From Andreprevotia sp. IGB-42 (GTDB taxonomy: Bacteria > Pseudomonadota > Gammaproteobacteria > Burkholderiales > Chitinibacteraceae), in NCBI RefSeq assembly GCF_009848685.1, contig NZ_WXTX01000013.1, forward strand, positions 1 through 64,000: a DNA stretch of 64,000 bases. The letters run 5' to 3'. The notes beneath the pieces are model-generated. The model saw only the letters and a program-made list of their open reading frames with translations, was not told the origin of the DNA and did no database searches. Made by a program: the position numbers and the translations under genes. This document shows positions 20,000-38,313 of this stretch, in pieces (position 1 is the stretch's first letter; each line of letters opens with the position of its first letter).

Positions 20000-20059
20000 G
20001 CACCCGTTTGCTGGTCTAGTTTGAAAAACAAGCCTTTACCAGCGCGGGGACAACGACCA

Positions 20060-22683: not shown

Positions 22684-22860
22684 GTGGCCAAACCGACTGC
22701 GGAGTGTGTGGCGGCGGCGGGCGTACGGTGGAACTGGCTACTGAAGGATTGCAAAGATGCACCTGGATGCTACAAAGAATTTGCCGCAACGCTGTCTGCC
22801 AGAAGAGGCCAACCAATATCTGATCGAACGGGCGCACGCAAACTAGCTCAGCTGCACTAA
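22684..22860 (+). CDS. Small open reading frame, unrecognised
   Basis: A 58-codon frame from GTG 22684 to TAA 22858 (MAKPTAECVAAAGVRWNWLL ... ARKLAQLH). The residue mix looks coding-like, and no other frame in this stretch is better. There is no clear ribosome-binding site, and it is convergent with vsr, the stop codons overlapping. The surrounding 22540-22860 is probably debris of the transposon. It may be the end of a truncated gene. Confidence 0.25.
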   Translation: MAKPTAECVAAAGVRWNWLLKDCKDAPGCYKEFAATLSARRGQPISDRTGARKLAQLH

Positions 22861-23291
22861 GGCCAGGCCAGATAGGCAGGACCAGATTGAACGATCTTGG
22901 GTAGCCATTCTAACGATTCTGATGAGCGGGATTTGAGCCCGCATTCCCAGATGGTTATTATGCGCCACCCCATGACAAGTAGTTGGTCGGTGGTCTCTCT
23001 ATCTCGCTTGACGTTCTCATCAAACTTCTTGTTCCAGAAGTCTGCTCTCGTGTGCGGCACCGTTGCGTAACGGCAGTCGTTATGGCGATGCCAAAAGCAA
23101 CCATGCACCAAAATGCAGACGTGATATTTGGGAAGAACGATGTCCGGGCGACCCGGCAACCGCTTGTCATGCAGTCGAAAACGGAACCCCTTGGAGTGCA
23201 GGAAGCAACGAACCTGTAGCTCCGGCTTGGTGTCTTGCCCGCGTATGTTCGACATCATCCGCGAACGAACTTTGGGTCCAACGATATCCAC
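22857..23291 (-). CDS. vsr: Very-short-patch mismatch repair endonuclease Vsr
   Basis: Vsr nicks 5' of the T in T:G mismatches that arise when 5-methylcytosine deaminates, protecting methylated sites from mutation. The motifs RSRMMSNIRGQDTKPE, GRPDIVLP (catalytic Asp), VHGCFWHRH (catalytic His) and the zinc-site region around CRYATVP and FW-x-x-KF-x-x-N are present. GTG 23291 is taken as start because GAGG lies eight bases upstream and family alignment begins shortly before RSRMM; TTG 23330 and ATG 23258 are alternatives. It is divergent from the cytosine methyltransferase, its usual partner. Confidence 0.93.
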   Translation of the reverse strand: MDIVGPKVRSRMMSNIRGQDTKPELQVRCFLHSKGFRFRLHDKRLPGRPDIVLPKYHVCILVHGCFWHRHNDCRYATVPHTRADFWNKKFDENVKRDRETTDQLLVMGWRIITIWECGLKSRSSESLEWLPKIVQSGPAYLAWP

Positions 23292-23356
23292 GTTTTCATC
23301 CTCGTCGTGTTCCTGGTATCCTGGAATCAACAGAACAGCATCCGAGTTACCTTACA

Positions 23357-24964
23357 ATGAGCAGCAAACCAATCCCTATCGTTGACCTTTTCGCTGGACC
23401 GGGTGGCCTTGGGGAAGGTTTTTCGTCGTTGTCGGACGGAAAGGCGTTCAGGATCGTTGTGTCGGCCGAGATGGATCAGTCATCTTGGCAAACCCTGCGG
23501 CTGCGTGCCTTCTATCGCATCCTCAAGTCGACCAACTCTGTAGGACTTGAAGACTACTACCGGTTCTGTAACGGCGATGCACTACAACCTTGGACCGCCG
23601 AGACTGAAGAAGCGTGGAACGCTGCCGGCAATGAGGCTAGACAGATAACGCTCGGGACTCAAGCCGGAAATGAAGAGCTCGACAGTGTCCTTGTGAATCA
23701 TCTGGATGTCTCAAAACCATGGGTACTCATAGGCGGTCCCCCATGTCAGGCCTACTCGGTCGTCGGACGTTCTCGAAACCGTGGTAATTCCGATTACAAA
23801 CCGGAAGAGGACCATCGACACTTTCTGTATCGTGAATATCTGCGAATCATCCAGCGATATCGCCCTTCTATCTTCATAATGGAAAATGTACGGGGAATAC
23901 TTACGGCCAAAGTTGCCGACAGACAAATCTTCCATGAAATCTTGGTCGATCTGGCCAACCCGGATGCTGCGCTGGGGGTGGAATCTGGCCTCCCTGGCTA
24001 TACGATACATTCTTTAGTCGCTGATGCCACATTCACTCAGGGAATGAATCCGGAGGATATCGACTCCAGCCAGTTCGTCATCTGTTCAGAGCAGTATGGA
24101 ATTCCGCAGACGAGACATCGGGTTATCTTACTTGGTATCCGTGATGATGTCCGCGCGAAGGTTGGCTTGCTTGACTTGGCGCAAGCGCCTACCGTAAAGC
24201 ACCTTATCGGGACTCTTCCCAAGCTTCGTAGCACACTCAGCAAGCAGGCCGATTCCGATTCGAACTGGAATATTGAAGTCAAACGACACTTCCAGCATCT
24301 ACATGCTGCAGCGGTCGCCGCAGGCAAAAAGGAGCTTGCCGATCAATTGCTGGTTGCCCGCGAAGGCATAGGGGCTCCTCTCGACAGGGGTGGATTGCGC
24401 TATACGAAGGTCAACGGAGATGGAAGTACAGGGATCGCAACACTGGACAGTTGGCTACTGGATCCCAAACTGTCGAAATGGCTCAACCATGAAGCTCGCG
24501 GACACATGACATCCGATCTGAGGCGATACGCATATGCAGCGGCCTTTGCAAAGGCCGCTGGCGCCTCACCTTTCGGGCACGAGCAGTTCGATCTTCCCGA
24601 CCTCAGTCCTGCACACAAAAATTGGGAGAGCGGAAAGTTTCCGGATCGTTTTCGGGTTCAGGTGGCTGAACGCCCCTCGACCACCATTACAAGCCACATT
24701 TCCAAGGACGGGCATTGCTTCATCCATTACGATCCGGTTCAGTGCCGGAGCCTTACGGTTCGGGAAGCTGCGCGACTCCAAACCTTCCCAGACAACTACT
24801 TTTTCCAAGGAAATCGGACACAGCAATTCCATCAAGTAGGGAACGCAGTTCCACCCTTGCTTGCTAGCAAGATTGCTCATCTAGTGGCGCATCTGCTGAC
24901 TGAAAAGCCCGTGGAATCGGTTCTACACGAAGCTGCCGATCAAGTGGAATTGGCCGCCACCTGA
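23357..24964 (+). CDS. DNA (cytosine-5-)methyltransferase
   Basis: A 535-residue C5 methyltransferase using S-adenosylmethionine. Ordered motifs: I (DLFAGPGGLGEGF, residues 9-21), IV with catalytic Cys (IGGPPCQAYSVVGRSRNRG), VI (ENVRG), VIII (QTRHRVILLGIR), the target-recognition region (about residues 275-440), IX (RSLTVREAARLQTFPDNY) and X (QVGNAVPP). Start ATG 23357 (MSSKPIPIVDLF) is set by motif I; the longer frame upstream covers vsr. It is divergent from vsr and convergent with the DUF262-HNH gene. Codon use is clearly less GC-rich than in core genes. The recognition sequence cannot be read from the protein. Confidence 0.95.
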   Translation: MSSKPIPIVDLFAGPGGLGEGFSSLSDGKAFRIVVSAEMDQSSWQTLRLRAFYRILKSTNSVGLEDYYRFCNGDALQPWTAETEEAWNAAGNEARQITLGTQAGNEELDSVLVNHLDVSKPWVLIGGPPCQAYSVVGRSRNRGNSDYKPEEDHRHFLYREYLRIIQRYRPSIFIMENVRGILTAKVADRQIFHEILVDLANPDAALGVESGLPGYTIHSLVADATFTQGMNPEDIDSSQFVICSEQYGIPQTRHRVILLGIRDDVRAKVGLLDLAQAPTVKHLIGTLPKLRSTLSKQADSDSNWNIEVKRHFQHLHAAAVAAGKKELADQLLVAREGIGAPLDRGGLRYTKVNGDGSTGIATLDSWLLDPKLSKWLNHEARGHMTSDLRRYAYAAAFAKAAGASPFGHEQFDLPDLSPAHKNWESGKFPDRFRVQVAERPSTTITSHISKDGHCFIHYDPVQCRSLTVREAARLQTFPDNYFFQGNRTQQFHQVGNAVPPLLASKIAHLVAHLLTEKPVESVLHEAADQVELAAT

Positions 24965-25021: not shown

Positions 25022-26578
25022 TTAATTCTTCATGCCGGTGTTGCAAAATGGATGGGTCATTTGCCCATTGGTAACCTCGCCGGTTCCTCCATTCTCACGA
25101 CGGATGATGTGATCGTAGGATACCGATTTAGTTGGGTGCAGATATCCATTGCAAATCGGACATTTCAAAGCATTTGCGAGAGCGGCCGTCACAAACATCA
25201 TGGATTTTGTGTCGTCGCTGAAATTTAGGGGGGGGTGGATCGAGTTGACATCCAGAATCTTTCCGCGAAGGCCTAGGTGTGCTATTGCGTCCTCAGTTAC
25301 TAGAATCTCTCCACTCGATACCGTATCAATGAGGTACTCGAACAGCTTCTTCATCCGCGGTACTCTTTGGGCCTTGCTCATATTTTGTTGAACAAGGGCA
25401 ATAAGTGACTTATTGGCCACGAGAAATTGCTCGACAGCGCTCCGAGCACGTGTGAATTTCTTAAAGAAGTTGCTGTCGTTATTTCTAACTCTTTCGGTAA
25501 TAAGTGCGGTCATGCCAAGAAACAAGAAGCGGTTGTATTTCCCCCTCTCGTTATAGAAATAAACCGCCGGATGTAACCCTAAGCTTCCAGGAGTATTGCC
25601 TGTAATTCGATTAAATATTTCGAAAGATCGCTGAAGTACGCCAATAGTCTCTTCGCCAGTCTCATCATCAAGTTGTTTGTCAATTGTTAGCCCTTCGGCC
25701 TGTCGAGCACCGGAGACAGTCAAAAAATCTATCAACAGCGATAGCGCCTCGACTGGTGACACTGAGCCGCCAAAAGGTACGTCCAGCGTCTTCAATGGTA
25801 GATTCGACTCTGGCTCAAAAAGAAGCTTATAAAAGTCGTTTGCGGTTCCTTCTAGCTGCTCCCTGCATTCCAGCGAGAAACGTGACCAATACTTGTGGCC
25901 AGTTCCTGAGCGCAGAATAGCCCTTGCCCCAATCGCAATTGGTTTGCGACGATTCTTTATGAGCATTTCTTCGGTGTCGTCAAGCGGTGTTCCTTGGGAG
26001 TTGATTTTAAAGAAAGAGGTCTCGGCAACATCTGCATTCCCCTGCACCCACTGTAGGTTTAGGGCGCGCGTAAAGAGTCGATTTGCACGTCGCAAGGCGT
26101 CCGGATCATCTGAAATCTTTGTACCACTGAGATTTCGAAGGCTGGAGAATCTTCCTACTTTCTGCTCTATTACTTGTCGAGCTCGTTTGGCAACCTTCTT
26201 CTGCTCTTCAGATATTTCGCCCTTGTAAAAGGCCAAGCTCAGCGCCCCATCTCCATAGTCATCCTCTATCCAAGCACGAAGTGCGCTTAGTCGATGACCG
26301 CCATCAATTACAAAGACGTAGGTTGGGGACTTCCACAGAATCAGGGAGGGAATAACTTCATTGTCGAGAAAGCTCGCAATTAAAGTGGCCACTTGCTCTG
26401 GCGACCAATGGTTCGTTTCTCGCTGAAAGTCAGGTTTCCGTAACAGTTTCAGAATCGCTGAATCGGACAACAGATAGCTGATGGAAAAGTTTTGAAAGAG
26501 GTCTAGGGTAAACTCTTCGTCAGCAAGAGCGAAATCCTCGCGAGGTATCATTGCGTCGAGCGTCACGCGCTGTGCCAT
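25022..26578 (-). CDS. DUF262 (ParB/GmrS-like) protein with C-terminal HNH nuclease domain
   Basis: A 518-residue protein. The N-terminal DUF262 domain (about residues 30-230) shows PDFQRETNHWS, IPSLILWKS and the nucleotide-site-like VIDGGHRLSALRAW. The C-terminus is an HNH endonuclease: CPICNGYLHPT, SYDHIIRRENGGTG, and NGQMTHPFCN. This DUF262-plus-nuclease plan is that of GmrSD-type and related restriction enzymes. With the neighbouring methyltransferase and Vsr it could form a restriction-modification unit, or act independently against modified DNA. Codons are the most AT-rich of the island, including in-frame TTA and ATA. Confidence 0.85.
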   Translation of the reverse strand: MAQRVTLDAMIPREDFALADEEFTLDLFQNFSISYLLSDSAILKLLRKPDFQRETNHWSPEQVATLIASFLDNEVIPSLILWKSPTYVFVIDGGHRLSALRAWIEDDYGDGALSLAFYKGEISEEQKKVAKRARQVIEQKVGRFSSLRNLSGTKISDDPDALRRANRLFTRALNLQWVQGNADVAETSFFKINSQGTPLDDTEEMLIKNRRKPIAIGARAILRSGTGHKYWSRFSLECREQLEGTANDFYKLLFEPESNLPLKTLDVPFGGSVSPVEALSLLIDFLTVSGARQAEGLTIDKQLDDETGEETIGVLQRSFEIFNRITGNTPGSLGLHPAVYFYNERGKYNRFLFLGMTALITERVRNNDSNFFKKFTRARSAVEQFLVANKSLIALVQQNMSKAQRVPRMKKLFEYLIDTVSSGEILVTEDAIAHLGLRGKILDVNSIHPPLNFSDDTKSMMFVTAALANALKCPICNGYLHPTKSVSYDHIIRRENGGTGEVTNGQMTHPFCNTGMKN

Positions 26579-26750: not shown

Positions 26751-28520
26751 TTACTTCAATTCCGGAATATTGGTCGCTAGGATCGAGTAGCTCGCGTTCA
26801 TCACCGCCTCCTTACACTCCGGCCGCTTGGCCCACTCGGAGACCATCTTGCCGCCGGACGAGGAGTGCAGCACGTCGTTGACCTCCTTGGCCCAGACGGC
26901 GATCTGCGCGAGCAGCTCCGGCGATGCCGCCTGCTTGGCCCAAATGCGGTCGAGGTCTATGCGGTCGCCGAGCTTCTCAGCCACCAGCGACACCGTATAG
27001 GCGGTGACGTTGGCTTGGAAGGCTTGAAACATCGGCCGCAAGAGCTTCTGCGCGTCGCGGTAAATCTTGGCCTTGGCGATCATGGCCTTGAAATCGGCGA
27101 CGGTAGGCAGCGGTGCCTCTTGCCCGTCGGCAGGCGTCAGGCCGGCCATGAACTTGTCGAAGTTCTTCTGCGAGCCGAGGCTGACGATGTCGGGCTTCTT
27201 GTCCCAAGCGGTGATGTATTTGGCCAAGTCCGTCTTGGTGACGCGGCGCGCGTTGGGGATGGCGTCCTTCAATGCCTTGAGCTTGGCTGGCGTGGTGCCC
27301 TCGCGCGCAAGCAGCGTGTTGTAGCTGCCCGAGGCGCGCTCGTAGAACCATTGGCCCACGCCATCGGGGCAATAGACCGAGCGCGAGAGCTTCTCGATTT
27401 CGACGTGGAAAGGCTTGTTGGCCGACAGATCCGATTGCCGCACGGCGTTTTGGCTGTTTGCAAAGCGGCTGATGTCGGAGACGAGCGCCTCCTCCTTGGC
27501 CGAGTCCTGCGCGCGCATAACGATGATCTTGGCGGGCACGCGCACGCGGCTGAGGTCGGTGTCGGGATACTTCTTCTTAGCGAAATAGATCGACGCGGTA
27601 GTCTGCCCGCCATTTACAATTTGCAGACCCTTGAGCCAGGCGATGCCGGCGGAGCCGTCGCCAGGCTTGCCTAGGCGCATCTCGTCGGCCACGATCACGA
27701 TGCCGTTGTTGTAGGCCATGAATCGCTCTGGGGCCGAGCGCAGCGTGTTTTGGATGCCAGCGTTAACGCCCTTACCCTTGACGCTCAGGAAGGAGCGGAC
27801 GTTGGCCTCGAGAAGCCGCGCGCCGAACTTCTCGTAGAGCAGGCGCAGCGCCTCGGCCGGGATCGCCGTGAGGGCGTAGTCGTAGTCGTCGCTCTCGCCG
27901 GGCACGAAGACGCAGGGCAGCGGAGCGCCTGAGACCTCCGTGAAGTCCACCACCAGCTCGTCGCGCGGCTTGCCCTCCGACCAATGCCGGTGCAGCCGCT
28001 CAATGTCCATGACCTCCAGGCGCACGGCCTTCCCGCCGATGTCGCGGGTCTTAAAGCTCTTGGACTTTGCGACGCGATCAGTAATAACGTAGACGCGAAT
28101 CTGCTCCAAGTCGTCATAGATGGCCCGCAGCGTCTCGGCCAGCGAGCGCACGTCGCTCGACGGGTCGAGCTTGGGCGCCATCTTGCCCTCGGCGCACAAC
28201 GTCAAAAAGCGTAGGCACTGCTCGACGGCAGTCTTGGTCTCCGAGTCGGGGACTGGCGTAGGCACATCGACATTGGCGTAGAGACTCACGAACAAGTCGA
28301 GCTGGTCGCTTTCCTCGGACAGCGAGTAGCCGCTCAGGCGCAGGTTGGTGTTGCCGACCTTGCCCTCGAAGTGGCACTCGACGGGCTCGAACGTCATGCC
28401 GATGTCAGACATGTGGTCCATCACGATGCCGGAGAAGACCAGCTCCTCATACAGAGCGCCGTCTCGCATCTGCGAGCGGACGGCGGCCTGCGTCTCGCGC
28501 AGGAACTCAGGCAAATTCAT
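26751..28520 (-). CDS. AIPR family protein (abortive infection phage resistance)
   Basis: A 589-residue protein with the AIPR signature in its centre: NVRSFLSVKGKGVNAGIQNT, then FMAYNNGIVIVADE, and the LQIVNGGQTTASIYFAK segment (residues about 255-345). AIPR proteins are linked to phage abortive infection and often lie at the end of restriction-like operons; their biochemical activity is not established. It is the last gene of the five-gene defence operon, two bases after the PD-(D/E)XK gene, and is followed by a 172-bp gap to the DUF262-HNH start. Confidence 0.9.
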   Translation of the reverse strand: MNLPEFLRETQAAVRSQMRDGALYEELVFSGIVMDHMSDIGMTFEPVECHFEGKVGNTNLRLSGYSLSEESDQLDLFVSLYANVDVPTPVPDSETKTAVEQCLRFLTLCAEGKMAPKLDPSSDVRSLAETLRAIYDDLEQIRVYVITDRVAKSKSFKTRDIGGKAVRLEVMDIERLHRHWSEGKPRDELVVDFTEVSGAPLPCVFVPGESDDYDYALTAIPAEALRLLYEKFGARLLEANVRSFLSVKGKGVNAGIQNTLRSAPERFMAYNNGIVIVADEMRLGKPGDGSAGIAWLKGLQIVNGGQTTASIYFAKKKYPDTDLSRVRVPAKIIVMRAQDSAKEEALVSDISRFANSQNAVRQSDLSANKPFHVEIEKLSRSVYCPDGVGQWFYERASGSYNTLLAREGTTPAKLKALKDAIPNARRVTKTDLAKYITAWDKKPDIVSLGSQKNFDKFMAGLTPADGQEAPLPTVADFKAMIAKAKIYRDAQKLLRPMFQAFQANVTAYTVSLVAEKLGDRIDLDRIWAKQAASPELLAQIAVWAKEVNDVLHSSSGGKMVSEWAKRPECKEAVMNASYSILATNIPELK

Positions 28521-28522
28521 TC

Positions 28523-29533
28523 TTAGATCGCTCCCAGTTTCTTCAATGCGCCTTCGGCCCCGACGTTGTCGCCGGGCGTCTTGTCGAGGTCGATTTCATA
28601 TATGGCCTTCATGATGCCCGCCGGCACCGTGCCCGAGGTCATCCGGGGGAAGTTGCCCGCGACCTCCACCACGCGCGTGCCGGCCTGCTCGAACTTCCTT
28701 GGATAGCGGTCGGCGTGAGAGTCGATGTAGCCCGCGGCCAGCAGGCGCTCGGACAGGAGCCGCTCTGCCTCCGCGTCGCCCTTGATGGCCTGGCGCATCG
28801 CATCGACGAAGCCAGGCAGGCTCTGGCCGCTCTCGGTTTGCCGCAGGCGAGCTCCGGCCACAAAGAGGGGTTGTCGCGTGGAGTCGTCGAGTTGCTCGAG
28901 CGAGCCGATCCGGGCGGGGAAGCCGGCCACCGACAGCGTGGCCTTGACCTCCAAAGCGCCCGCGCCGATCTCAAAGTCCTGGATGCCGTCGAGCGGTCCC
29001 ACCCACGACTCGATGGCAGTCGCTGGCGCCACGCCCGCCTCGATGATGGCCCGCAACAACGCTAGCTCGCCGATCAGGCCGATCTCGGCTTCGGGGCTCA
29101 GGGCCTGGCTCCCTTTGCGCATGAACTCCTGCCACGCGCCCACGCGGCCAATGAAGACACGAAGGAGCTTGCGGTAGTCGGAACCTGCCGCGATCGCCTC
29201 GTCGAGCGCACCCACGATATCGCAGGCCATGGACGCGAAGAGATCTGCGCTGCCGGCCGCCTTGCGCGTCAGGGCGAGCCAAAGCTTTCCGCTGCCGTCG
29301 GGGTCCGCGCGCTCGACGGCAAAGCCCTGGCCCTCGGAGAGCTTGTCGGCGGTGGCGAGCTTCGCGGATGGGAAGCACACCAACACCGCCTCGGCGTTGT
29401 CGGGCGAGCGCCGGCCTGCGCGCAGTTCGAGCGGCCCAGCGGAGGGCAGCGCGATGGCTTGCCATCCTGGCTCGTTGTCGGCGCTGGTGAGCGATGACCA
29501 AGCCATCAGGAATTCGTTACTCGGACGGGCCAT
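28523..29533 (-). CDS. PD-(D/E)XK nuclease-fold protein (DUF4420-like)
   Basis: A 336-residue protein. The restriction-nuclease core is seen as Glu156 in GLIGELALL, Asp186 in GIQDFEIG and the E195-x-K197 pair in GALEVKAT, which is the order expected for the PD-(D/E)XK active site. The remaining sequence fits the DUF4420 family that accompanies Z1 and GHKL ATPase genes. It is the likely DNA-cleaving subunit of the system. It overlaps the Z1 gene by 17 bp and precedes AIPR by two bases. Confidence 0.85.
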   Translation of the reverse strand: MARPSNEFLMAWSSLTSADNEPGWQAIALPSAGPLELRAGRRSPDNAEAVLVCFPSAKLATADKLSEGQGFAVERADPDGSGKLWLALTRKAAGSADLFASMACDIVGALDEAIAAGSDYRKLLRVFIGRVGAWQEFMRKGSQALSPEAEIGLIGELALLRAIIEAGVAPATAIESWVGPLDGIQDFEIGAGALEVKATLSVAGFPARIGSLEQLDDSTRQPLFVAGARLRQTESGQSLPGFVDAMRQAIKGDAEAERLLSERLLAAGYIDSHADRYPRKFEQAGTRVVEVAGNFPRMTSGTVPAGIMKAIYEIDLDKTPGDNVGAEGALKKLGAI

Positions 29534-32459
29534 ATTCCTGTATCCAATAGAGGAGGTTCACTTCGTATTCCACGCGAATGCTGTTCTCGGCCGACGGGAA
29601 GGCGATGGCGAAGGCCATGATGGGCTTCTCCCACCCGGGCACGATGAGGTTCTCGGGAGCCTTGGCCTTGCCCTTGTAGGGCGACAGTGTATAGAGCAGC
29701 AGCAGGCCGCGGTCGGCGTCGCCGCCGAGTCGGTCGCGCGCCTCGCGAATCCCCTTGCCGCTCGGGATCGTGGGCGGATTGACGCGGCCCCGCGCCGGGT
29801 CGGGCTTCCACGCCGCGTGGGTGCGGGCGAGCGCGTCGCGCCACGCGCCGTCGTCGAGGTCGATGCCCTCGTCCTTCGGATCGGTCAGAACGCCGATGGC
29901 GAACATCGCCGGGTCTTTTGCGCCGGGCGTGCCGTCGATCTTGCGGGTTTGCAGCGACTTGGCCTCGAAGCCGCCGGGGAACGTATAGGGCTCGCCAACG
30001 CCGTCGCCGCCGGAGAGCACGGCGACGCTCCAGCGCTTCAACTTGCCGATGTCGAGCATCTTAGCGATGAAGTCGGATAGCACCGCAGCCTTCGCGCTCG
30101 TTGCGTTTGGGTGGGTTATGTATGCGGTCAGGAACGCCAGGACGTGAGAGGCGTCCACGTCGCTCCAAAGGCGCGCGCCGGGCCACGAGTCGGTGTCGCC
30201 GTCGCGCAGATACTTCGGGCCATCCACGAAAGTTGTCCCGAGGGCGGTGACAAGCGCGTCGGTCGCGTCGAGGTTGGCCTGCTGGATGGCCGCGCTGCGG
30301 TGAAAGAGGATGGTTTGCGGGCGTGTGCCGCTGTAACTCAGCGACAGCGTTTGCGCGTTGCGCATCTTCAAGGGCGATGTGACCGTGAGTGTCTCGTGCG
30401 ACATGACCTTGAGGCCGTATTGCTCGGGCGTGAGCTTGGCCTTAGCCATGAAGTCGAACTCCTCGCGCAGCTCCTCGGAGGCGTCGGCGATGTGGCCGAA
30501 CCACCTCACTAGGTCCGGCGACGTGTAGAGCCGGCAGAGGTCCAAGTATCCCGGGCGGTAGCCAAACCAACGGCCCATCTGCATCAGCGTGTCATACATC
30601 TTCGTTGTGCGCACGAAGTAGCTGGTGCAGAGGCCTTCGAGCGTTAGGCCCCGAGCGAGCTTGTCGCCGCCGACCGCGATGACCTTCAAGGCCGCGCCAG
30701 GCGTGGCGTAGTCGAGCGCGTCCTTGGCCGTTCCGTTGATCGAGCGCACGTCGATGTCGGCGAGCACGTCGGGCAGCTTGGCGAGCACGTCGTCCCAAGA
30801 GGGCATCGGAGGAGGTAGCTCCTCGGGCGCCGAGAGCCCAGCGACCTTGTCGCACGTCGGGACAAAGTCCTCGTCCCAGATCGCGCGCATCTGCGCGATC
30901 AGCTCGTCCGCGTCGCTGCCGCGGGTGATCTTCTGGCGCATCCGGCGCACGGTCTCCTCGACCTGCTCGCGCACATGGTCCTGCACCGCCACGTAGCGGG
31001 TGACGTGGATCAGCATGGAGCTGTGCTCGAGCCCTTGGCCGCGCAGCTCGCGAACCGCGCAGGCGAGGATGAAGGAATGGATCGCCTCGCGCAGGGACTT
31101 GGGGATCGTCTCCTGGCCGTTGTGGACCGGAACGTGGGTCTTCTTGTGTTTGGGTGGCATCCACCCCGCCTCGGCCTCCGGGTCGTAGTGGTCGAGGATG
31201 CTGCGCGAGAGCGGCAGAGCGCCGACGCGGCCTTCCTTGGTCAGCTTGCCGAACATTCTGGCGGGGCCGACATAGTTCGACGGCGCGGCCAGGTTGATGA
31301 TGAAGGCCTTGGGAAACAGGTCCGGGCCTTCGGCGGTGGTTGCGCCCTTGTGGTGGATGTAGATGTTGGCAAAGGGCGTGGCCGTGTAGCCCACGTAGGC
31401 CTTACGGCTGAACGAGTGCAAGACCCGCCGGATGAGGCTGTTGATGGTCTTGGGCGAGTGCTCCTCGTCCGGCGTGCCGTCCTCGTTGAAGAGCTGTTCG
31501 CCAGTGTCCACCGACGCGTTGTCCGCCTCGTCGTCGATCACCAGCAGTGGCAGCTTGGTCACAAGCCTCCACTCCTTCCCGTCCGGGAGGGGATGCTGGA
31601 GCGGGATTGTGTAGGGAAGCGGGTGGGGCGTGTCGGCCACTCGTTTTTGAATCCACTTGAGAAGCTCCGTGAGCACGGTCTTTTGCTTCTTGACCACGAA
31701 GATCCAAGGGCGCTCCTCGGGAGAGATGCCGTTGAAGTGCTTGGCGATGGCCTTGCTGAAATCCCCGTTCTCGGCGCGCGTCGTCGCTGAGTTGGTTTTG
31801 AGGTCCTCGCCGAACGCGGCCACCCCGATGGATGCGCCAGGATCGCCGCCCTGCGTCGTCTCGTAGCCTAGGAAGCCCTCTTCAAGGCGAATCTGGGTCT
31901 GCGAGCGCAGGTTGTTGTGCAGGCCCGCCAGCACAATGATGATCTTATAGCCCGCGTCAGCGGCCTTGTTGATGAGGCCGGTGTAGTTGCTGGTCTTGCC
32001 CGACTGTACATGGCCGACGACTAAGCCGCGGCGGTCCCAAGGGTCTGTCCGCAGCGGGTCTTCGAGAAGGCCTAGGATGTCGCTGGTGGACTCGTCGAGG
32101 CCATCGACGACCACGTCAGAGAGTTTCGACTCCTGATAGTCGCGGTAGCGGCGCCAGTAGTGCCAGTCCTTCTTGCGGGCAGCATTGAGCCAGTCGATGT
32201 GCCCGGTGTTGTCTTTGAGCGTAGTGGCCTTGCCCATGCGGTGGCTGAACCGCTGGATCAGCGTGGAGACCAGCTTGACCTCGTCGAGCGTCACAGGTGG
32301 GTCGCTGGCGAATATCTCGGCGGCAAGCTTCACTTTCTCGGCGATGAAGGCCGGCGTGATCTTCGACGAGTCTTTCTCCGCCTTCACCAGCCGCTGCGCG
32401 GTGGCGATGACATCTTCCAGCAACTGGGCTTGCGCTGCTGCCTCTTCCACTGCGGTCAT
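29517..32459 (-). CDS. Z1 domain superfamily-2-helicase-like ATPase
   Basis: A 980-residue ATPase. Walker A is GHVQSGKTS (residues 149-157); Walker B/DEAD-like box is VIDDEAD (307-313); motif III is GYTATPFANIYI (about 354-365). The Z1 C-terminal half has VGGDKLARGLTLEGL and LMQMGRWFGYRPGYLDLCRL, which is diagnostic for the domain and contains the arginine finger region. It presumably translocates on or remodels DNA for the nuclease. ATG 32459 overlaps the GHKL ATPase stop as ATGA. Confidence 0.93.
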   Translation of the reverse strand: MTAVEEAAAQAQLLEDVIATAQRLVKAEKDSSKITPAFIAEKVKLAAEIFASDPPVTLDEVKLVSTLIQRFSHRMGKATTLKDNTGHIDWLNAARKKDWHYWRRYRDYQESKLSDVVVDGLDESTSDILGLLEDPLRTDPWDRRGLVVGHVQSGKTSNYTGLINKAADAGYKIIIVLAGLHNNLRSQTQIRLEEGFLGYETTQGGDPGASIGVAAFGEDLKTNSATTRAENGDFSKAIAKHFNGISPEERPWIFVVKKQKTVLTELLKWIQKRVADTPHPLPYTIPLQHPLPDGKEWRLVTKLPLLVIDDEADNASVDTGEQLFNEDGTPDEEHSPKTINSLIRRVLHSFSRKAYVGYTATPFANIYIHHKGATTAEGPDLFPKAFIINLAAPSNYVGPARMFGKLTKEGRVGALPLSRSILDHYDPEAEAGWMPPKHKKTHVPVHNGQETIPKSLREAIHSFILACAVRELRGQGLEHSSMLIHVTRYVAVQDHVREQVEETVRRMRQKITRGSDADELIAQMRAIWDEDFVPTCDKVAGLSAPEELPPPMPSWDDVLAKLPDVLADIDVRSINGTAKDALDYATPGAALKVIAVGGDKLARGLTLEGLCTSYFVRTTKMYDTLMQMGRWFGYRPGYLDLCRLYTSPDLVRWFGHIADASEELREEFDFMAKAKLTPEQYGLKVMSHETLTVTSPLKMRNAQTLSLSYSGTRPQTILFHRSAAIQQANLDATDALVTALGTTFVDGPKYLRDGDTDSWPGARLWSDVDASHVLAFLTAYITHPNATSAKAAVLSDFIAKMLDIGKLKRWSVAVLSGGDGVGEPYTFPGGFEAKSLQTRKIDGTPGAKDPAMFAIGVLTDPKDEGIDLDDGAWRDALARTHAAWKPDPARGRVNPPTIPSGKGIREARDRLGGDADRGLLLLYTLSPYKGKAKAPENLIVPGWEKPIMAFAIAFPSAENSIRVEYEVNLLYWIQEYGPSE

Positions 32460-33949
32460 TTTTTGCTCCCAAGTTTCGCGATGAGCGCGGGATATTTTTG
32501 AAACGGCTCCGTGCGCAACATCGACTTGCGCGCCTCCTCGATGTTCAGGCCCTTGCGCTCAATGAGATCGTCGAAGAGCACGCTGGCAACCTCGACAACC
32601 GCCGCGTTGGGCTCGCCCTCGAATCCCGTGCGCGGCGTCTCTTTGTTCTCGGCTGTGTCCAGCCAAATGCGCTGCACCGGCACGGTCTCCTCGATCACCC
32701 GAAGCATCGACTTGACCAACGGGGCGAGGGCGCCAGAGCTCTCCAAGACGGCGGCCACCGACGGATGCGCCTCATCGATGCTGTATCGCATGCCGGCCTT
32801 GACTCGCTCGACGCGCCAGGCCTGTTCGATGGGGACGCTGCCCTTCGCCGGAGCTGGCGTGCCTCGGTAGGCAAACACGCGGCGCGCTCGCTCGCGGGTG
32901 TTCTCAGCGAGCAGGGTGAGCCACGGCCGCAGCGACACGGGTGGCCGAGCCGTCGATTTGCGAACGTCGATCTTCCAGTCGGCGTCGGCCGTGTTCGGAA
33001 TGTCCAGCCGAATGCGCGCCAGGCGATGGGCCTCCTCGCGGTTCCACGCGCGTGAGCCCCCAAGGCCAAGCCAACCGCCCGCGACCAATAGCCGCTCGTT
33101 GCGGTAGACGTAGAAGCCTTGCTGCGCGGTCCAGCCGGCCGGGCCGGCGTTCTCGTCATACTCGACGGCGGTCAGCTTGTCGCGGTGCGGAAGGACATGC
33201 GCCTGCACCGTGACCGTCCCGTAGTCAGTGGCGTGATTGGTAGGCGGCGACGTCCAAGGCTTCGCGGGGTGGCCCGTCATGAAGGGGTCCCATGGAGCAA
33301 CTGCCCGGCCGTTGACGAGCAGTTTGAGCTTGGCTCGCGGCCTTTGGAGCAAGCGGTGGAAGACCATCGCCAGATGGGACTCGACGGTGTCGATGAGGTC
33401 GTGGAAATCATCAGAGGTGTAGCCGGCGGTCACGACGCGGTCCATCGCCTCCCACAGCACGAGCGTTCCGGTCTTCTTGCCCTTCAGACTAGCGAGGAAA
33501 GGTTTGGACCTTTGGGCAGGCCCCTCGAACAATAGCCAACCACCATCTGGATTTGCAGCGAGCTCGTCGAGGTCCCAGCGCAGGCAGCTTGCGGCGCCGC
33601 CTTTGAGGGTGGCGACAGTGAGTCGGCGGCACTGAGAGAAGGACGCGGTTTTCAGGCCCATGCCGAAACGCCCGAGATCGTGGGCCGAACGCGCGTCAAG
33701 CGGGTTCTTGTCGCCCAGGCGCATTGCGCTTTCGAGCTCGGCATCGTCCATCCCGCGCCCGTCGTCGAGGATCGCGATGCGGCTCTTGGAACCGTCCCAA
33801 GTGAAATCAAGGCGGACTTCGGAGGCGCCAGCCGACACGCTGTTGTCGATGATGTCAGCCAAGGCCGCGCCGGTTGAGTAGCCCAGGCCCCGCAGAGATT
33901 CGAGCATCGCCATCGCGCGCGGCGGCGCGCTTCTTGTCTTGGGCTTCAT
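32456..33949 (-). CDS. GHKL (MORC/MutL-like) ATPase
   Basis: A 497-residue protein with an N-terminal Hsp90-type ATP-binding domain: N-box ALADIIDNSVSAGA (residues 29-42), G1 box LDDGRGMD (61-68), and G2 box GRFGMGLKTASF (93-104). In the N-box the usual catalytic Glu is Asp32, with Asn36 retained. The rest is an S5-like second domain and a helical C-terminus without a known module. MORC-type ATPases clamp DNA on ATP binding. ATG 33949 overlaps the sigma-factor stop as ATGA; TTG 33955 is less likely. Its neighbours indicate a subunit of an ATP-dependent anti-phage complex. Confidence 0.9.
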   Translation of the reverse strand: MKPKTRSAPPRAMAMLESLRGLGYSTGAALADIIDNSVSAGASEVRLDFTWDGSKSRIAILDDGRGMDDAELESAMRLGDKNPLDARSAHDLGRFGMGLKTASFSQCRRLTVATLKGGAASCLRWDLDELAANPDGGWLLFEGPAQRSKPFLASLKGKKTGTLVLWEAMDRVVTAGYTSDDFHDLIDTVESHLAMVFHRLLQRPRAKLKLLVNGRAVAPWDPFMTGHPAKPWTSPPTNHATDYGTVTVQAHVLPHRDKLTAVEYDENAGPAGWTAQQGFYVYRNERLLVAGGWLGLGGSRAWNREEAHRLARIRLDIPNTADADWKIDVRKSTARPPVSLRPWLTLLAENTRERARRVFAYRGTPAPAKGSVPIEQAWRVERVKAGMRYSIDEAHPSVAAVLESSGALAPLVKSMLRVIEETVPVQRIWLDTAENKETPRTGFEGEPNAAVVEVASVLFDDLIERKGLNIEEARKSMLRTEPFQKYPALIAKLGSKK

Positions 33950-36606
33950 CGCCAATAGCCTTTCCCTGGCCAGTATTCAAACCCAAGCGCAATCAGCTTT
34001 CGGACGATCTTGCGGGAGCGGTTGTCGGGTGTATTTGTGATGTGTACCCACAGCCTGCGTGTATCGCCTTCAAGGGAGTCCTCAACGAGGATGCCAGCCT
34101 CTCGCACCTGATCCAAGACCTTGTCTAGGGCCATGGGCCCGGTGTCCATCTGCTGCTCGGGTCGCCGGGCGGCCACCTTGGGCTCTGGAGCAGGGAAGGC
34201 GACCATTGCGATTGGTGCGTCGCATTCAAAGTCGCTGTCGGAATCGCTTGATGTGTTAACTCTCAGCTTGCACCTTGGGGTTAGGCCCAGTTCGAGCAAG
34301 AACCGGTCGAGCCGCGCAGGATGCCTCAATCGGCGAAGAGCAGTCGCCTCGATTTGCCTGATACGTTCGCGTGTCACTTCGAAGTGAACGCCGACCTCTT
34401 CGAGCGTCATCGACTTTTGAACACCGATACCAAAGCGCATGCGTAGGACGTTTTCTTCTTTGGGCTTGAGCATGCTCAGGAAGCGATCCACGGATTCGCC
34501 TAATTGGATGTCCTCGACTATCTCCATCGGGTCGCAGAGTGTGAAATGGTCTTTGGCGTCGGCAGTGATGAGGTCGTCGATGTCGGGCAACCCATGGAGA
34601 GGTAGCGGGTCCATACCCAGGCGGGAGAGAGTCGAGACCTTGTGAGCGGGCAACTCGACGAGCGCCGCGATCTCCTCAACAGAGGGGCCGTGACCATGCT
34701 TGAGTTCAAAGTCGCAGGCAGCCTGCGCGATTCGTTGGGTCTTCTCGTAGACGTGGACTGGAAGGCGGATAGTCTTGCCCTTGTCGGCGATGAAGCGCCC
34801 GATCTGCTGGCGAATCCACCAGGTGGCATAAGTCGAGAATTTGAAGCCCTTGCTCCAGTCGTAGCGGTCCACAGCCTTGATAAGGCCGATGTTCCCCTCT
34901 TGCAGCAGGTCGTCAAGTGGCTGACCGCTGAACATGTATTTCTTGGCAATGGAGAAGACGAGCTTCAGGTTGGCGACGGCCATTTGGTCTCGCGCGCGCC
35001 GATAACCCTTCATTGCCTGCGCGAACGCCAGGGAGCGCTCGGATTCTCCAGCGAGCCCGGAGTCGGCCAGCTCCACGAGAAAGCCGCGGGTCAGGCCCAA
35101 CGATGTGAGGGTGCTTCGGCACGCTTCCCATTCGGGCGTGTCCTGGCTCGTATCGACAGCGAGGTTCGACAAGAGCTCCGCGCTGGTACAGAACTCCGCC
35201 AGCTTGTCGGGGAATTCTTTGGCGTCAAGGTCAAATTGGGAGTCGCTTTCTTCGGCGTCAATGGCTTCGCTCTCGGCCGGCAGCTCCAACTTGGAGTTGA
35301 ACTCAGTCTCTTCTGGCTCAATTTCCGAGCCGGACGACATGCAGCGCAGGGGCTTCGCGCCTCGCGCTACCTCGCGGGCCGCTTCCAGCACGGCGCCGAT
35401 GCCGGATGGCCAGGCGGCTAGTGCATCGAGCGATCTCTCGATTCCGCGCTCCATGGCTTGGCCTAAGGCGACTTCAGCCGCAGCGGTAAGCAGCGCTTCG
35501 CGTTGGAATTCCCGCTGGTAGATACGCAAAGGTTCATTACGGCGCCCAGCGAGGTCGTCCACGAACGCCAAAGCGTCTGCAACCACCTCCTCTTCGTCAG
35601 AATTCTCGCCGGGCGCGACAAACACCTCAAAACTCTCGTGCGGAGCCGAATACTCAAATCGCTCGTCCGTCTCAGCACCGAGGTCGTTGATGACCATACC
35701 CAAGAGCGCGTCGGCTTCCGCGTCGGACTCGCCATCATCGCCACGCGTCAAGTCTTCGATGGCTGAATGCGGGACGCTACCCTCACGAATGGCGCGAAGC
35801 ACAACCAGGCGCAGCCGTTCGCGTGCCTCGCTGTCATCTGAACAAGGCAGGGGCGTCGCCCTGTCGGGCAGGAAAGCCTCAAAGTCGCCCCAGTCGGCGG
35901 ACGTGTCGATGGGCTGGTGTTCGTTGATTGCGCTTTGGATCTCAAAAGCAGCCGTAGAAAGGGTCTGGTCGCCCTCGGGTGGCGGCTGGTCTTCTTCGGC
36001 TTCCCAGCCTGTCAAGTCAAACTCGTCGCACTCATCGTCAGAAGCCTGTGAGGCTACGGCAACGGTAGCGGACTTAAGCTCCAAGATTGCAGCGAGCGCT
36101 CCGGTCGGCTGCACTGGACCCGCACAACCATTCCCACCGAAAGCTATGTCGTTCTCAGCTTGCTCCCAACACTCATCCTGAATGAAATGCGTATGCCCAT
36201 CCAGACCATTGTCACCGGCGGAGGCTGACTTCGGCACACACGCTGCCTCAATTACCGCAGCTGCATCAAGAGCTCCTGTGGCTTGGGCGATGGCGTAGGC
36301 ATTGCTTCCCAAAGGATCCAGCAAATCGGCATCGGCGCCAGCAGCTAGTAGGAGTTTACAGATAGTGGCCTTGTTGCGGGCCGCAGCAAGCATAAGAGGC
36401 GTTTGGCCCTTGTTGTCTCGGGCATTGAGGTCGTCTCCGCGATCAATGTGGATTTGAACTGCGCTTTCTACGCCAGCCATGACCGCCATTCTGAGGAATC
36501 GGTTCAGGAGTGGAGCGCCTTGGATAGCAATGCCCTTCACGCGTTGGCCCCTTTCCGGAGTGCTTGAACGGTGATTTCCATGTTTGATCGAAGGTTTGGC
36601 GCCCAT
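33946..36606 (-). CDS. RpoD-like sigma-70 factor with N-terminal ankyrin repeats
   Basis: An 886-residue protein. Residues 33-120 hold about two ankyrin repeats (KGQTPLMLAAARNKATICKL). An acidic linker follows, then region 1.1-like (262-315: LRLVVLRAIREGSVPHSAIE), region 1.2 (357-412: EPLRIYQREF), a divergent non-conserved region, region 2 (535-612: KFSTYATWWIRQQIGRFIAD), region 3 (613-690) and region 4 (700-770: VTRERIRQIEATALRRLRHP). A C-terminal 115-residue extension ends GFEYWPGKGYWR. The -35-recognition helix is essentially that of RpoD; in region 2.4 the Thr used at -12 by E. coli sigma-70 is Gly603. It heads the operon and is coupled to the GHKL ATPase by ATGA. It is probably a dedicated promoter-recognition factor. 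Confidence 0.92.
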   Translation of the reverse strand: MGAKPSIKHGNHRSSTPERGQRVKGIAIQGAPLLNRFLRMAVMAGVESAVQIHIDRGDDLNARDNKGQTPLMLAAARNKATICKLLLAAGADADLLDPLGSNAYAIAQATGALDAAAVIEAACVPKSASAGDNGLDGHTHFIQDECWEQAENDIAFGGNGCAGPVQPTGALAAILELKSATVAVASQASDDECDEFDLTGWEAEEDQPPPEGDQTLSTAAFEIQSAINEHQPIDTSADWGDFEAFLPDRATPLPCSDDSEARERLRLVVLRAIREGSVPHSAIEDLTRGDDGESDAEADALLGMVINDLGAETDERFEYSAPHESFEVFVAPGENSDEEEVVADALAFVDDLAGRRNEPLRIYQREFQREALLTAAAEVALGQAMERGIERSLDALAAWPSGIGAVLEAAREVARGAKPLRCMSSGSEIEPEETEFNSKLELPAESEAIDAEESDSQFDLDAKEFPDKLAEFCTSAELLSNLAVDTSQDTPEWEACRSTLTSLGLTRGFLVELADSGLAGESERSLAFAQAMKGYRRARDQMAVANLKLVFSIAKKYMFSGQPLDDLLQEGNIGLIKAVDRYDWSKGFKFSTYATWWIRQQIGRFIADKGKTIRLPVHVYEKTQRIAQAACDFELKHGHGPSVEEIAALVELPAHKVSTLSRLGMDPLPLHGLPDIDDLITADAKDHFTLCDPMEIVEDIQLGESVDRFLSMLKPKEENVLRMRFGIGVQKSMTLEEVGVHFEVTRERIRQIEATALRRLRHPARLDRFLLELGLTPRCKLRVNTSSDSDSDFECDAPIAMVAFPAPEPKVAARRPEQQMDTGPMALDKVLDQVREAGILVEDSLEGDTRRLWVHITNTPDNRSRKIVRKLIALGFEYWPGKGYWR

Positions 36607-36955: not shown

Positions 36956-37051
36956 CTACCATTGCTTGGTACGCGGAGACTTCAGCAGCGGAATGAATTC
37001 TATCTCGGCGACGATTGGACGAATCACAGCTGAAAATGCTTGGGAGCTTGT
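36956..37051 (-). pseudogene. Gene fragment cut by the IS3-family element
   Basis: The minus-strand frame ending at TAG 36956 reads FSAVIRPIVAEIEFIPLLKS and then PRTKQW before the stop. It is open up to the IS3 left end. It is in the same frame as the 95-codon gene downstream, consistent with one ancestral gene interrupted by a nonsense codon and truncated at its 5' side by the insertion and a deletion. Confidence 0.35.
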
Positions 37052-37091
37052 CCGGTAATCCCCCCGTTTTTAAGCGAGGTCAGAATAGACG

Positions 37092-37891
37092 TCATTTGGC
37101 TAATGCCAGCTTCTGTTTCGGGGTGATGCCCCCAAGCGCCATGTTCGGGCGATCGTGATTGTAAGTCCACATCCAGTTCGTTGCATGCACCTGAACCTGG
37201 GCGATCGATTCAAACAGGTACTGGCCCAGCCAGTCATATCGTACGGTGCGGTTGTAGCGCTCAACATAAGCATTCTGCTGAGGCTTGCCCGGCTGGAGAT
37301 GCAGTAGCTGGATGCCCCGTTTGGCAGCCCAGTGCGTCAGCGTGCTGCCGATATACCCGGACCATTGTCACTGCGAATGGCATCGGGTGTACCGCGCCAT
37401 TCGATGACCTGATCCAGTGCACGTACCACCCGTTCTGCCGGTAGGGACAGATCCACCTCCATGGCCAGCGCCTCCCGGTTGAAGTCATCAATGACGTTGA
37501 ACAGCCTGAAGCTGCGCCCATCCGCCAACTGATCGTGCATGAAGTCCATCGACCAGCACGGGTTGGCGACCTGCGGGACTGCAAGGGGTTCGGGCTTCTC
37601 TCGCAGAATGCGCTTTTTGGGCTTGATCCGCAGGTTCAGCGCCAGTTCCCGGTAAATCCGGTACACCCGCTTGTGGTTCCAGCGGTATCCCTTCACGTTG
37701 CGCAGGTATAAAAAGCACAGGCCAAAGCCCCAGTTGCGCTGGTTGTGCGTCAGCCGGATCAGCCAGTCGGCGATTTCATGGTTGAGCCCGGAACCTCTGG
37801 ACTGGTAGCGATAGCAGGTCTGACTGATACCGAATGCCTTGCAGGCTGCAGCAATGGCGCAGCCGAAATCCCGCACTGCGCGTTGTGCCAT
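37092..37891 (-). pseudogene. IS3-family transposase OrfB, frameshifted
   Basis: The rve/DDE integrase part of the transposase. From ATG 37891 the frame gives [10 protein letters not shown], the HTH-like region, the first catalytic Asp in [10 protein letters not shown] and the second in IRSDNGPG. At about 37356 one base is missing, giving a premature TGA at 37337. In the next frame the sequence continues as [10 protein letters not shown] through NAYVERYNRTVR (third catalytic residue, Glu) to ALGGITPKQKLALAK and TGA 37092. The protein is therefore split within the catalytic domain. Confidence 0.85.
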
Positions 37892-37911
37892 CTCTCGTCG
37901 ACGAGAGATGG
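37888..37911. repeat. Perfect 24-bp palindrome at the orfA/orfB junction
   Basis: CCATCTCTCGTC is followed directly by its complement GACGAGAGATGG. It lies nine bases downstream of the A6G slippery run (37920-37926, minus strand). IS3 elements use such a slip site plus hairpin for -1 frameshifting into OrfAB. Here the -1 frame leads to [14 protein letters not shown] instead of the family's KVxKPSRRREMA, which indicates a two-base (CT) insertion inside the palindrome. Confidence 0.7.
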
Positions 37912-37916
37912 CTTCA

Positions 37917-38180
37917 TCACTTTTTTGTGAGTGCTTCCTGCACGATCTCGGCCTTGAGGCGTTCTTCGGCATACATCTTCTTGAGCCGCCGGTTCTCGTC
38001 TTCGAGTTCCTTGAGGCGGGCCATGAGTGAGGCATCCATGCCGCCAAAGCGGCTGCGCCATTTGTAGAAAGTGGCCGAACTGATGCCGTGTTCCCGGCAC
38101 AGTTCAGGAACGGGTGAGCCGCTCTCGGCCTGTTTGAGAATGGCAATGATGTGGCTGTCGGAAAAGCGTGAGCGCTTCAT
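37917..38180 (-). CDS. IS3-family transposase OrfA (HTH)
   Basis: An 87-residue DNA-binding protein beginning [19 protein letters not shown] with the helix-turn-helix [19 protein letters not shown] and the leucine-zipper-like helix [20 protein letters not shown]. It binds the inverted repeats and normally forms the N-terminus of the OrfAB transposase. It is intact and ends ALTKK at the frameshift site. Confidence 0.93.
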
Positions 38181-38252
38181 GTAAAACTTCCTCGGTCGTT
38201 CAGGGAGAAAATTCTACTTATGACGACGGTTAATTTCAGGGGGGATTACCGG

Positions 38253-38313
38253 TTTGGTCATGGCCGGAGTTTACCGATGGGGCTCAGGTGCAGGGCGTTG
38301 TGCAACAAAGCCC
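38253..38313 (-). mobile_element. Remnant of an IS5-family end with the first transposase codons
   Basis: On the minus strand GGGCTTTGTTGCA (38313 downward) matches the type of terminal repeat seen in IS5-group elements. About 50 bases later ATG 38261 opens ATG ACC AAA, followed by CCG in the IS3 flank, giving MTKP, a typical IS5-group transposase N-terminus. The frame is then broken by the IS3-family element, and the sequence beyond that element does not resume an IS5 transposase, so the rest was deleted. Confidence 0.45.

What the first reader, a model, noticed from the sequence alone, without database searches (positions are those of the whole stretch)
33946..36606. Full-length RpoD-like sigma factor with ankyrin repeats heading a defence operon
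The protein contains recognisable sigma-70 regions 1.1, 1.2, 2, 3 and 4, placed behind two ankyrin repeats and an acidic linker, plus a C-terminal extension ending GFEYWPGKGYWR. Region 4.2 is nearly that of RpoD, while in region 2.4 the Thr that reads -12 in E. coli is Gly603. It is joined to the GHKL ATPase gene by ATGA. A group-1-like sigma factor with a protein-interaction module inside an anti-phage operon suggests either a dedicated promoter switch triggered by infection or a decoy that interferes with phage takeover of RNA polymerase.
Basis: partly seen in the sequence, partly recalled or inferred. Interest (0 to 1): 0.93.

Follow-up and report, generated by a model that had tools for sequence, protein, structure and literature searches.

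The report
Defence-operon sigma factor swapped from hosts
The gene is the sigma-factor subunit (MzaA) of the known MZA anti-phage system, and a survey of its relatives shows that its promoter-reading half has several times been replaced by a copy of a bacterium's main sigma factor while its immune front end stayed the same, which makes its unknown role in defence testable.

Summary
An intact 886-aa ORF (33946-36606, minus strand) carries ankyrin repeats, sigma regions 1.1 (profile-profile only), 1.2, 2, 3 and 4 and a C-terminal module, and overlaps the GHKL gene by ATGA. It is not an unknown fusion: it is MzaA of the MZA defence system, followed by MzaB-E, and 70 of 74 MzaA examined match an ankyrin profile. 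Gly603 is found in 13 of 74, mostly near relatives of the window. New here: (1) twelve promoter- or core-facing residues are identical in all 74 MzaA, so the sigma half looks functional rather than a dead decoy. (2) The sigma half (region 1.2 to the end) has been replaced by a housekeeping RpoD several times independently, three or four times by the host's own, while the ankyrin/W-motif head stayed. (3) In captured copies the sigma finger drifts while contact residues stay. (4) The C-terminal module, in a subset, resembles the C-terminus of ZorC of Zorya. (5) In the window's part of the family a single-copy element precedes mzaA; the window lacks it. Best reading: a host-matched sigma70 copy that brings RNA polymerase/promoter engagement into MZA as a sensor or targeting arm. 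The mechanism is inferred, not shown.

The parts
33946..36606 (-). mzaA: ankyrin-sigma70 fusion, 886 aa
   Evidence: PADLOC MzaA E 9.1e-84; NCBIfam NF041931 499 bits, cut-off 800
36238..36501 (-). ankyrin repeats, residues 36-123
   Evidence: Pfam Ank_2 over cut-off; AF2 pLDDT 93-98, three helix pairs
35848..36018 (-). W-motif segment, residues 197-253 (DLxxWExE...P..D...H.PID...DW...LPE)
   Evidence: alignment A7 of 37 rows, invariant W, W, P; 4 clear hits in 398 genomes, all four with ankyrin and sigma matches on the same strand and an MzaB gene a short way downstream; dN/dS 0-0.34 in nine pairs
35665..35832 (-). region 1.1-like domain, residues 259-314
   Evidence: hhalign prob 90.5, E 1.4e-6; AF2 helices there; HMM search alone weak
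35440..35532 (-). sigma region 1.2, residues 359-389
   Evidence: Pfam over cut-off
34774..34974 (-). sigma region 2, residues 545-611, Gly603 inside
   Evidence: Pfam 74.2 bits; contact residues
34603..34746 (-). sigma region 3, residues 621-668
   Evidence: Pfam 24.2 bits, cut-off 25.3; RpoD alignment continuous through it
34321..34479 (-). sigma region 4, residues 710-762
   Evidence: Pfam 54 bits; R584 E585 R588 Q589 equivalents kept
33949..34140 (-). C-terminal module, residues 823-886, resembling the ZorC C-terminus
   Evidence: PADLOC ZorC1 PDLC00613 in 17 of 27 aligned C-termini at E up to 0.001, best 8.2e-9, window's own 1.2e-4; AF2 a-b-b-a-b-b
32456..33949 (-). mzaB, GHKL (MutL/MORC-like) ATPase
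   Evidence: PADLOC MzaB 5.2e-196; ATGA overlap with mzaA
29517..32459 (-). mzaC, Z1-domain protein
   Evidence: PADLOC MzaC 2.7e-295
28523..29533 (-). mzaD, DUF4420 PD-(D/E)XK protein
   Evidence: PADLOC MzaD 2.9e-56, Pfam
26751..28520 (-). mzaE, AIPR protein
   Evidence: PADLOC MzaE 2e-216, Pfam
25022..26578 (-). extra gene: GmrSD_N/DUF262-like with weak HNH
   Evidence: Pfam; no tblastn match at E 1e-8 in the stretches held of the 80 loci
23357..24964 (+). C5 cytosine methyltransferase next to MZA
   Evidence: Pfam, NCBIfam; tblastn match in 52 of 80 related loci
22857..23330 (-). Vsr endonuclease next to MZA
   Evidence: Pfam, NCBIfam; tblastn match in 59 of 80 related loci
37050..38260 (-). 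IS3-type element upstream of mzaA (edges approximate, read by eye)
   Evidence: transposase-like ORFs and inverted ends in the sequence; family by recall, not searched

Best explanation
The gene is mzaA, first gene of a divergent MZA defence operon (mzaABCDE). Its product is a sigma70-derived subunit: an ankyrin plus W-motif head, presumably docking the MZA machinery, carries a group-1 sigma body. I infer that MzaA binds core RNA polymerase and sigma70-type promoters and so brings RNAP/promoter state into the MzaBCDE ATPase-helicase-nuclease machine, as a sensor of phage takeover of host RNAP or as a targeting arm onto actively transcribed phage DNA, rather than being an ordinary regulator. 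To keep working it must stay matched to a host-type sigma70, which is why its body has repeatedly been replaced by an RpoD. Shown here: identity, architecture, constraint on contact residues, recurrent replacement, drift of the sigma finger. Inferred: RNAP binding, coupling of head to MzaB-E, trigger.
For: Identity. Of 87 sigma positions looked at in 74 MzaA, 14 are identical in all 74, among them the equivalents of E. coli N383, F427, W434, Q437, R451, T572, L573, R584, E585, R586, R588 and Q589; D403 and Q406 are 73/74. dN/dS in region 2 is 0.15 or less in 7 of 9 pairs. Recurrent replacement: in the body tree MzaA of L127, L078 and L108 are sisters of their own host's RpoD (100/98, 100/94, 99/100) and L079 lies in a 100/100 clade of three with its host's RpoD; holding six bodies as one clade is rejected (dlnL 329, p-AU 2e-32); pairs L079+L127 and L078+L108 rejected; own-host RpoD is the best match for 10 of 36 MzaA, about 1 expected. 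Mosaic: head like other MzaA, body like RpoD; the seven loci are scattered on the MzaB tree. In the seven captured bodies 35-38 of 38 contact sites equal the own-host or nearest RpoD against 80-113 of 142 other sites, and the sigma finger keeps 2-9 of 11 residues where host RpoDs share 8-11 of 11. The W-motif head was found only next to MzaB: 4 of 4 clear hits in 398 genomes.
Against: No protein-level or phage experiment. Five Pseudomonas/Stutzerimonas MZA loci have no MzaA head found anywhere in the genome, so MzaA is not indispensable. Contact residues are slow sites in working sigmas generally, so their conservation shows sigma function but not a defence mechanism. Other contact positions do vary (L402 is Leu in 14, Y425 Tyr in 9, T440 Thr in 30, K593 Lys in 59 of 74), and the window departs from the RpoD residue at 9 of the 38 contact sites. 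RpoS and RpoH of the window's genome also lack the RpoD-type finger, so finger drift does not prove loss of initiation. In the batch of genomes chosen for spread only 2 of 19 have own-host RpoD first (p about 0.10). The window's own body is an ordinary divergent one: its best RpoD match among 45 is 49% identical over the core.
Confidence: 0.45

Rival explanations
1. Dedicated transcription switch: MzaA directs RNAP to the promoter of its own operon (and perhaps few others), so that MZA stays or becomes expressed when phage factors disable host sigma70.
For: Sigma contacts intact. In the window's part of the family an element TGTAGAATTTGTAA lies upstream of mzaA; within one mismatch it occurs once in 6 of 10 genomes searched and by coordinates each time at the mzaA site; the reversed control found 0 in 10. 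Exact TGTAGAAT in 13 of 70 mzaA upstream regions against 7 of 1400 random windows.
Against: The window's genome lacks the element (0 in G000), as do three of the other nine searched; 57 of 70 upstream regions lack even the exact 8-mer. No -35 is visible by eye in the aligned copies. The RpoD-type finger is not kept in captured bodies. Repeated replacement by housekeeping RpoD fits poorly with a private promoter specificity.
Confidence: 0.25
2. Integrated decoy: the sigma body is bait for phage proteins that attack sigma70 (of the AsiA or Gp2 kind, recalled); binding of the phage protein triggers MzaB-E through the head. Replacement by host RpoD keeps the bait current.
For: Recurrent capture of host-type sigma70 under a constant immune head.
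Against: A pure bait need not keep every -35 contact (74/74 for R584, E585, R588, Q589) or dN/dS near 0.1 in region 2. No phage partner was tested.
Confidence: 0.2
3. Host-compatibility gene conversion only: MzaA is a helper sigma, and recombination with the resident rpoD after transfer to a new host merely restores fit to the local RNAP, with no sensing role.
For: Mosaic structure and own-host matches; MZA is found on a plasmid beside traI and in bacteria of different classes, so it moves.
Against: Leaves the conserved head, its finding only next to MzaB and the fixed place before mzaB unexplained.
Confidence: 0.1

Closest known systems
MZA system, MzaA (PADLOC PDLC02203; NCBIfam NF041931; Gao et al. 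2020, not held, known only as cited in PMC9523054)
   Same: Gene order mzaABCDE, ankyrin + sigma70 architecture, significant matches for all five proteins
   Different: All five proteins lie under the NCBIfam equivalog cut-offs; C-terminal module absent from the E. coli MzaA; extra GmrSD_N gene; methyltransferase and Vsr beside it
Housekeeping sigma70 RpoD
   Same: Regions 1.1 to 4, a core set of promoter and core contacts
   Different: Ankyrin/W-motif head, region 1.2 and finger diverged, second copy inside a defence operon
'Type II' Z1/DUF4420/AIPR systems of Miller et al. 2022 (PMC9523054, passages read)
   Same: Z1, PD-(D/E)XK, AIPR, MORC-like protein, methyltransferase
   Different: The paper gives about 20% identity to mzaBCDE and mzaA in only a few systems; here MzaA is present in 73 of 80 loci chosen by MzaB similarity
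ZorC of Zorya type I, C-terminus only
   Same: About 65-residue terminal module, by profile match
   Different: The rest of ZorC is absent; no significant structure match for the module

Membership tests
MZA system | Adjacent mzaA-B-C-D-E in order on one strand | tested here: met
MZA system | Scores over NCBIfam equivalog cut-offs | tested here: not met
   MzaA 499/800, MzaB 771.5/850, MzaC 1137/1500, MzaD 357/420, MzaE 926/1050; so a divergent relative by that yardstick, while PADLOC matches are strong
MZA system | Protects against phage | not testable with these tools
   -
sigma70 group 1 | Regions 1.2, 2, 3, 4 present | tested here: met
   r1.2, r2, r4 over cut-off; r3 just under cut-off but aligned continuously to RpoD
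sigma70 group 1 | Region 1.1 | tested here: inconclusive
   profile-profile E 1.4e-6 but HMM search weak
sigma70 group 1 | Promoter and core contact residues (list of 38 recalled) | tested here: inconclusive
   29 of 38 kept in the window; it departs at R385K, L402D, M413I, K418R, R423K, Y425F, T440G, R554K, K593T; in the family 12 named positions are 74/74
sigma70 group 1 | Conserved sigma finger (region 3.2) | tested here: not met
ZorC | Full-length EH-signature protein | tested here: not met
   only positions 500-568 of 570 match

The most novel reading that the evidence does not exclude
MzaA is a bacterial 'integrated decoy/sentinel': an immune receptor into which a host housekeeping sigma70 has been grafted again and again, so that phage interference with, or use of, sigma70-RNAP at promoters is detected and handed to a MutL/MORC-like ATPase, helicase and nuclease machine. 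It would be the prokaryotic parallel of plant NLR receptors with integrated decoy domains (parallel recalled).
Probability: 0.3. Interest if true: 0.9.

Novelty: new variant of a known kind. Interest (0 to 1): 0.62.

Why it matters
In the one paper on MzaA of which I could read passages (PMC9523054) the sigma subunit is named and given no role. Repeated replacement of its sigma half by RpoD suggests that resemblance to a host sigma70 is what is selected, and gives ready-made natural swaps for experiments. If the sentinel reading is right, bacteria guard their own transcription start machinery with a grafted copy of it.

Tried and rejected
Rejected: 'novel ankyrin-sigma fusion' (the family has it: Ank_2 in 36 of 37 and 34 of 37 members at E up to 0.01; the four without were not traced). 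Rejected: T440G as a sign of special promoter choice (T 30, S 20, G 13 of 74; 11 of the 13 are the window and members of its 15-row MzaB clade, two, L094 and L122, are not). Rejected: sequencing error or assembly chimera (captured bodies are only 46-75% identical to the own-host or best-matching RpoD by BLAST, and five of the seven records, L079, L082, L088, L108, L111, are not titled as MAGs; a chimera would be near 100%). Led nowhere: MzaA-family search of 398 genomes (swamped by RpoD); PDB profile search and fold search of the C-terminal module (one search gave mostly designed or repetitive proteins; no match at or under E 0.001); search for relatives of the 95-aa ORF 36614-36901 in the 80 loci (best E 0.014); promoter scan of the window upstream of mzaA (one site, chance level, inside the IS element). 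MzaA monophyly was my first expectation and was wrong. In some searches five pair tests did not finish and are not used; the six and four rows tested there were picked after seeing earlier results, so the p-values are not those of a blind test.

Papers: PMC9523054 passages; PMC2292703 one passage (the terms sigma factor, ankyrin and Z1 domain were not found there); PMC9122126 searched for Mza and sigma factor, none found; PMC11890865 passages; Gao 2020 not held. Other MZA-mentioning papers were seen only as search listings. That I found no description of sigma-body replacement or of the ZorC link rests in an open-licence library only; one search listed 40 of 907 and 10 of 378 papers, and two terms were the same word, so these are weak evidence of absence.
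Full report
What was checked. The ORF at 33946-36606 (minus strand) is intact, 886 aa. Pfam finds ankyrin repeats, sigma regions 1.2, 2 and 4 over their cut-offs and region 3 just under. The sigma core aligns continuously to RpoD chains in the PDB (best E 6e-69). The AlphaFold2 model has mean pLDDT 74.9 and pTM only 0.44, with disordered linkers; the 50 solved structures listed for it are all sigma70/SigA chains (best E 1.2e-17), with low whole-length TM-scores because the domain arrangement is unsure. Region 1.1 is supported by profile-profile comparison and not by a plain HMM search of the window protein. The ATGA overlap with the next gene is as described.

What it is. PADLOC and NCBIfam name the five consecutive products MzaA to MzaE. 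All five score under NCBIfam's equivalog cut-offs, so this is a divergent MZA. Related MzaB were found in 5 of 399 genomes of the order at over 730 bits, with 16 further matches in 15 other genomes at 190-361 bits. In 73 of the 80 a sigma core sits just upstream of mzaB. In all 73 loci where mzaE is found, mzaC and mzaD are found too, and in 66 of these mzaA. Of the seven loci without a sigma core, five Pseudomonas/Stutzerimonas loci form one clade on the MzaB tree and no MzaA head was found in their genomes; L112 has mzaB near a contig end and no head found in its genome either; L096 keeps a piece of head with no sigma behind it at a contig end. In E. coli mzaA is found in 55 of 5426 genomes, and a Thalassospira plasmid carries the operon beside traI.

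Family anatomy. At E up to 0.01, ankyrin repeats (Pfam Ank_2) are in 70 of 74 MzaA, sigma r2 and r4 in 74, r3 in 57, r1.2 in 41, and the RpoD-type non-essential region in 16. Between ankyrin and sigma lies a W-motif segment with invariant W, W and P in 37 aligned rows. Searched in 398 genomes it gave four clear hits, each with ankyrin and sigma core on the same strand, and one weak hit to part of the profile only, in a sigma without an ankyrin match. All four have an MzaB of over 750 bits close downstream. A C-terminal module of about 65 residues is found in a subset; 27 were aligned by reference. Of these, 17 match the C-terminus of ZorC1 at E up to 0.001 (best 8.2e-9; the window's own 1.2e-4). 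At E up to 1, 19 of 22 did. No solved structure matches it significantly.

Is the sigma half functional? On 74 MzaA aligned with 16 RpoD, 14 of the 87 positions looked at are identical in all 74, including the residues recalled as -35 readers (R584, E585, R588, Q589) and N383, F427, W434, Q437 and R451; D403 and Q406 are 73/74. Region 1.2 and the activator patch are relaxed (R99 37/74, R596 36/74, R599 39/74), and some recalled contacts vary too (L402, Y425, T440, K593). The window keeps 29 of the 38 contact sites used. Region 2 shows dN/dS of 0.15 or less in 7 of 9 close pairs; the other two are 0.27 and 0.41. So selection keeps a core of promoter and RNAP binding.

The sigma half is exchanged for RpoD. 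A tree of 62 sigma cores did not recover MzaA as one group. Own-host RpoDs were then fetched for 17 of 18 requested genomes (L082's genome is not held). In the tree of the region 1.2-to-4 body, MzaA of L127 (Accumulibacter), L078 (Gallionella) and L108 (Pusillimonas) are sisters of their own host's RpoD with starred support, and L079 (Rhodanobacter) lies in a 100/100 clade with its host's RpoD and one further RpoD. L082 groups with the Accumulibacter pair (96/87). L088 (Limnobacter) best matches the RpoD of a Comamonadaceae genome (64%), not its own host's (48.5%), as if captured elsewhere and then transferred. L111 (Cupriavidus) is less certain (82/96, in a group with long branches), though its own-host RpoD ranks first. 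One clade for six of these is rejected (dlnL 329, p-AU 2e-32), as are the pairs L127+L082 (p 0.003), L079+L127 and L078+L108; the rows were picked after seeing earlier results. Long branches are present (L079, L108), but they join RpoDs with short branches, not each other. Sliding identity for six of the seven shows heads at MzaA-like and bodies at RpoD-like values with the change near region 1.2. On the MzaB tree (a quick tree) the seven loci are scattered (7 changes, 5 forced by starred branches), and L082's nearest MzaB (L117) sits beside an ordinary MzaA. Over 36 MzaA with a host RpoD in hand the own-host RpoD ranks first for 10, about 1 expected (a 37th, L109, was left out because its host RpoD is cut). 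The first batch of 17 was chosen with candidates in mind and gives 8; the second, chosen for spread, gives 2 of 19 (p about 0.10), so exchange is recurrent but not universal. In the pair L100/L101 regions 3-4 alone have saturated synonymous change against about 0.07-0.19 upstream, which suggests exchange inside the sigma part as well.

What changes after capture. Against their own-host or nearest RpoD, the seven captured bodies keep 35-38 of 38 contact sites but 80-113 of 142 other sites in the mapped regions (the contact list is recalled). The sigma finger, 8-11 of 11 identical between 120 host RpoD pairs, falls to 2-9 of 11. RpoS and RpoH of the window's genome also depart from the RpoD finger, so this shows a different constraint, not necessarily loss of initiation.

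A lead on regulation. Upstream of mzaA in the window's part of the family lies TGTAGAATTTGTAA followed by a partly conserved stretch. Within one mismatch the 14-mer occurs once in each of 6 of 10 genomes and in none of the other four, the window's genome among these four; matching the positions, all six are the mzaA sites. No -35 is evident by eye. The window has an IS3-type element and a short ORF without relatives in the loci upstream instead.

How it most likely works. MzaA engages RNAP and sigma70-type promoters, and its head passes that state to MzaB-E. Whether it senses takeover of RNAP, targets the machine to transcribed phage DNA, or merely switches expression is not decided. Replacement by RpoD and kept DNA contacts favour the first two over a private-promoter switch, and kept DNA contacts disfavour a pure bait. 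I give the engagement reading 0.45, the switch 0.25, the pure decoy 0.2, and compatibility only 0.1.

Verdict. The recurrent grafting of RpoD onto a constant immune head is the new and testable part, and I found nothing on it in the library searched (several of them capped listings; the original MZA paper is not held).

Noticed in passing
L062, L069, L070, L073, L092, L094 upstream of mzaA: Single-copy element TGTAGAATTTGTAA (one mismatch in L062); in L070 it is a perfect 11-bp inverted repeat (TGTAGAATTTG ... CAAATTCTACA). Possible promoter or operator of MZA.
   Followed up: partly
33949-34140: C-terminal module resembling the C-terminus of ZorC (Zorya): a possible common defence module.
   Followed up: partly
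L115, L118, L121, L123, L125: MZA loci of Pseudomonas/Stutzerimonas without any MzaA found; all five have methyltransferase and Vsr matches just upstream of mzaB.
   Followed up: partly
L096:3-638: W-motif head piece with no sigma body directly before mzaB, at a contig end.
   Followed up: no
L100 vs L101: Regions 3-4 of MzaA saturated in synonymous change while the rest is nearly the same: likely partial exchange.
   Followed up: no
L177:713-1000: A piece similar to the N-terminus of MzaB (40% over 96 residues) lies upstream of this MzaA, besides the full MzaB downstream.
   Followed up: no
25022-26578: GmrSD_N/HNH-like gene between mzaE and the methyltransferase, without a tblastn match in the 80 loci.
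   Followed up: no
20021-20971 (+): Separate ankyrin-repeat protein, unrelated to MZA as far as seen (Ank_2 in 4 stretches).
   Followed up: no
L140: Thalassospira marina plasmid with a complete MZA operon next to traI and a methyltransferase.
   Followed up: no
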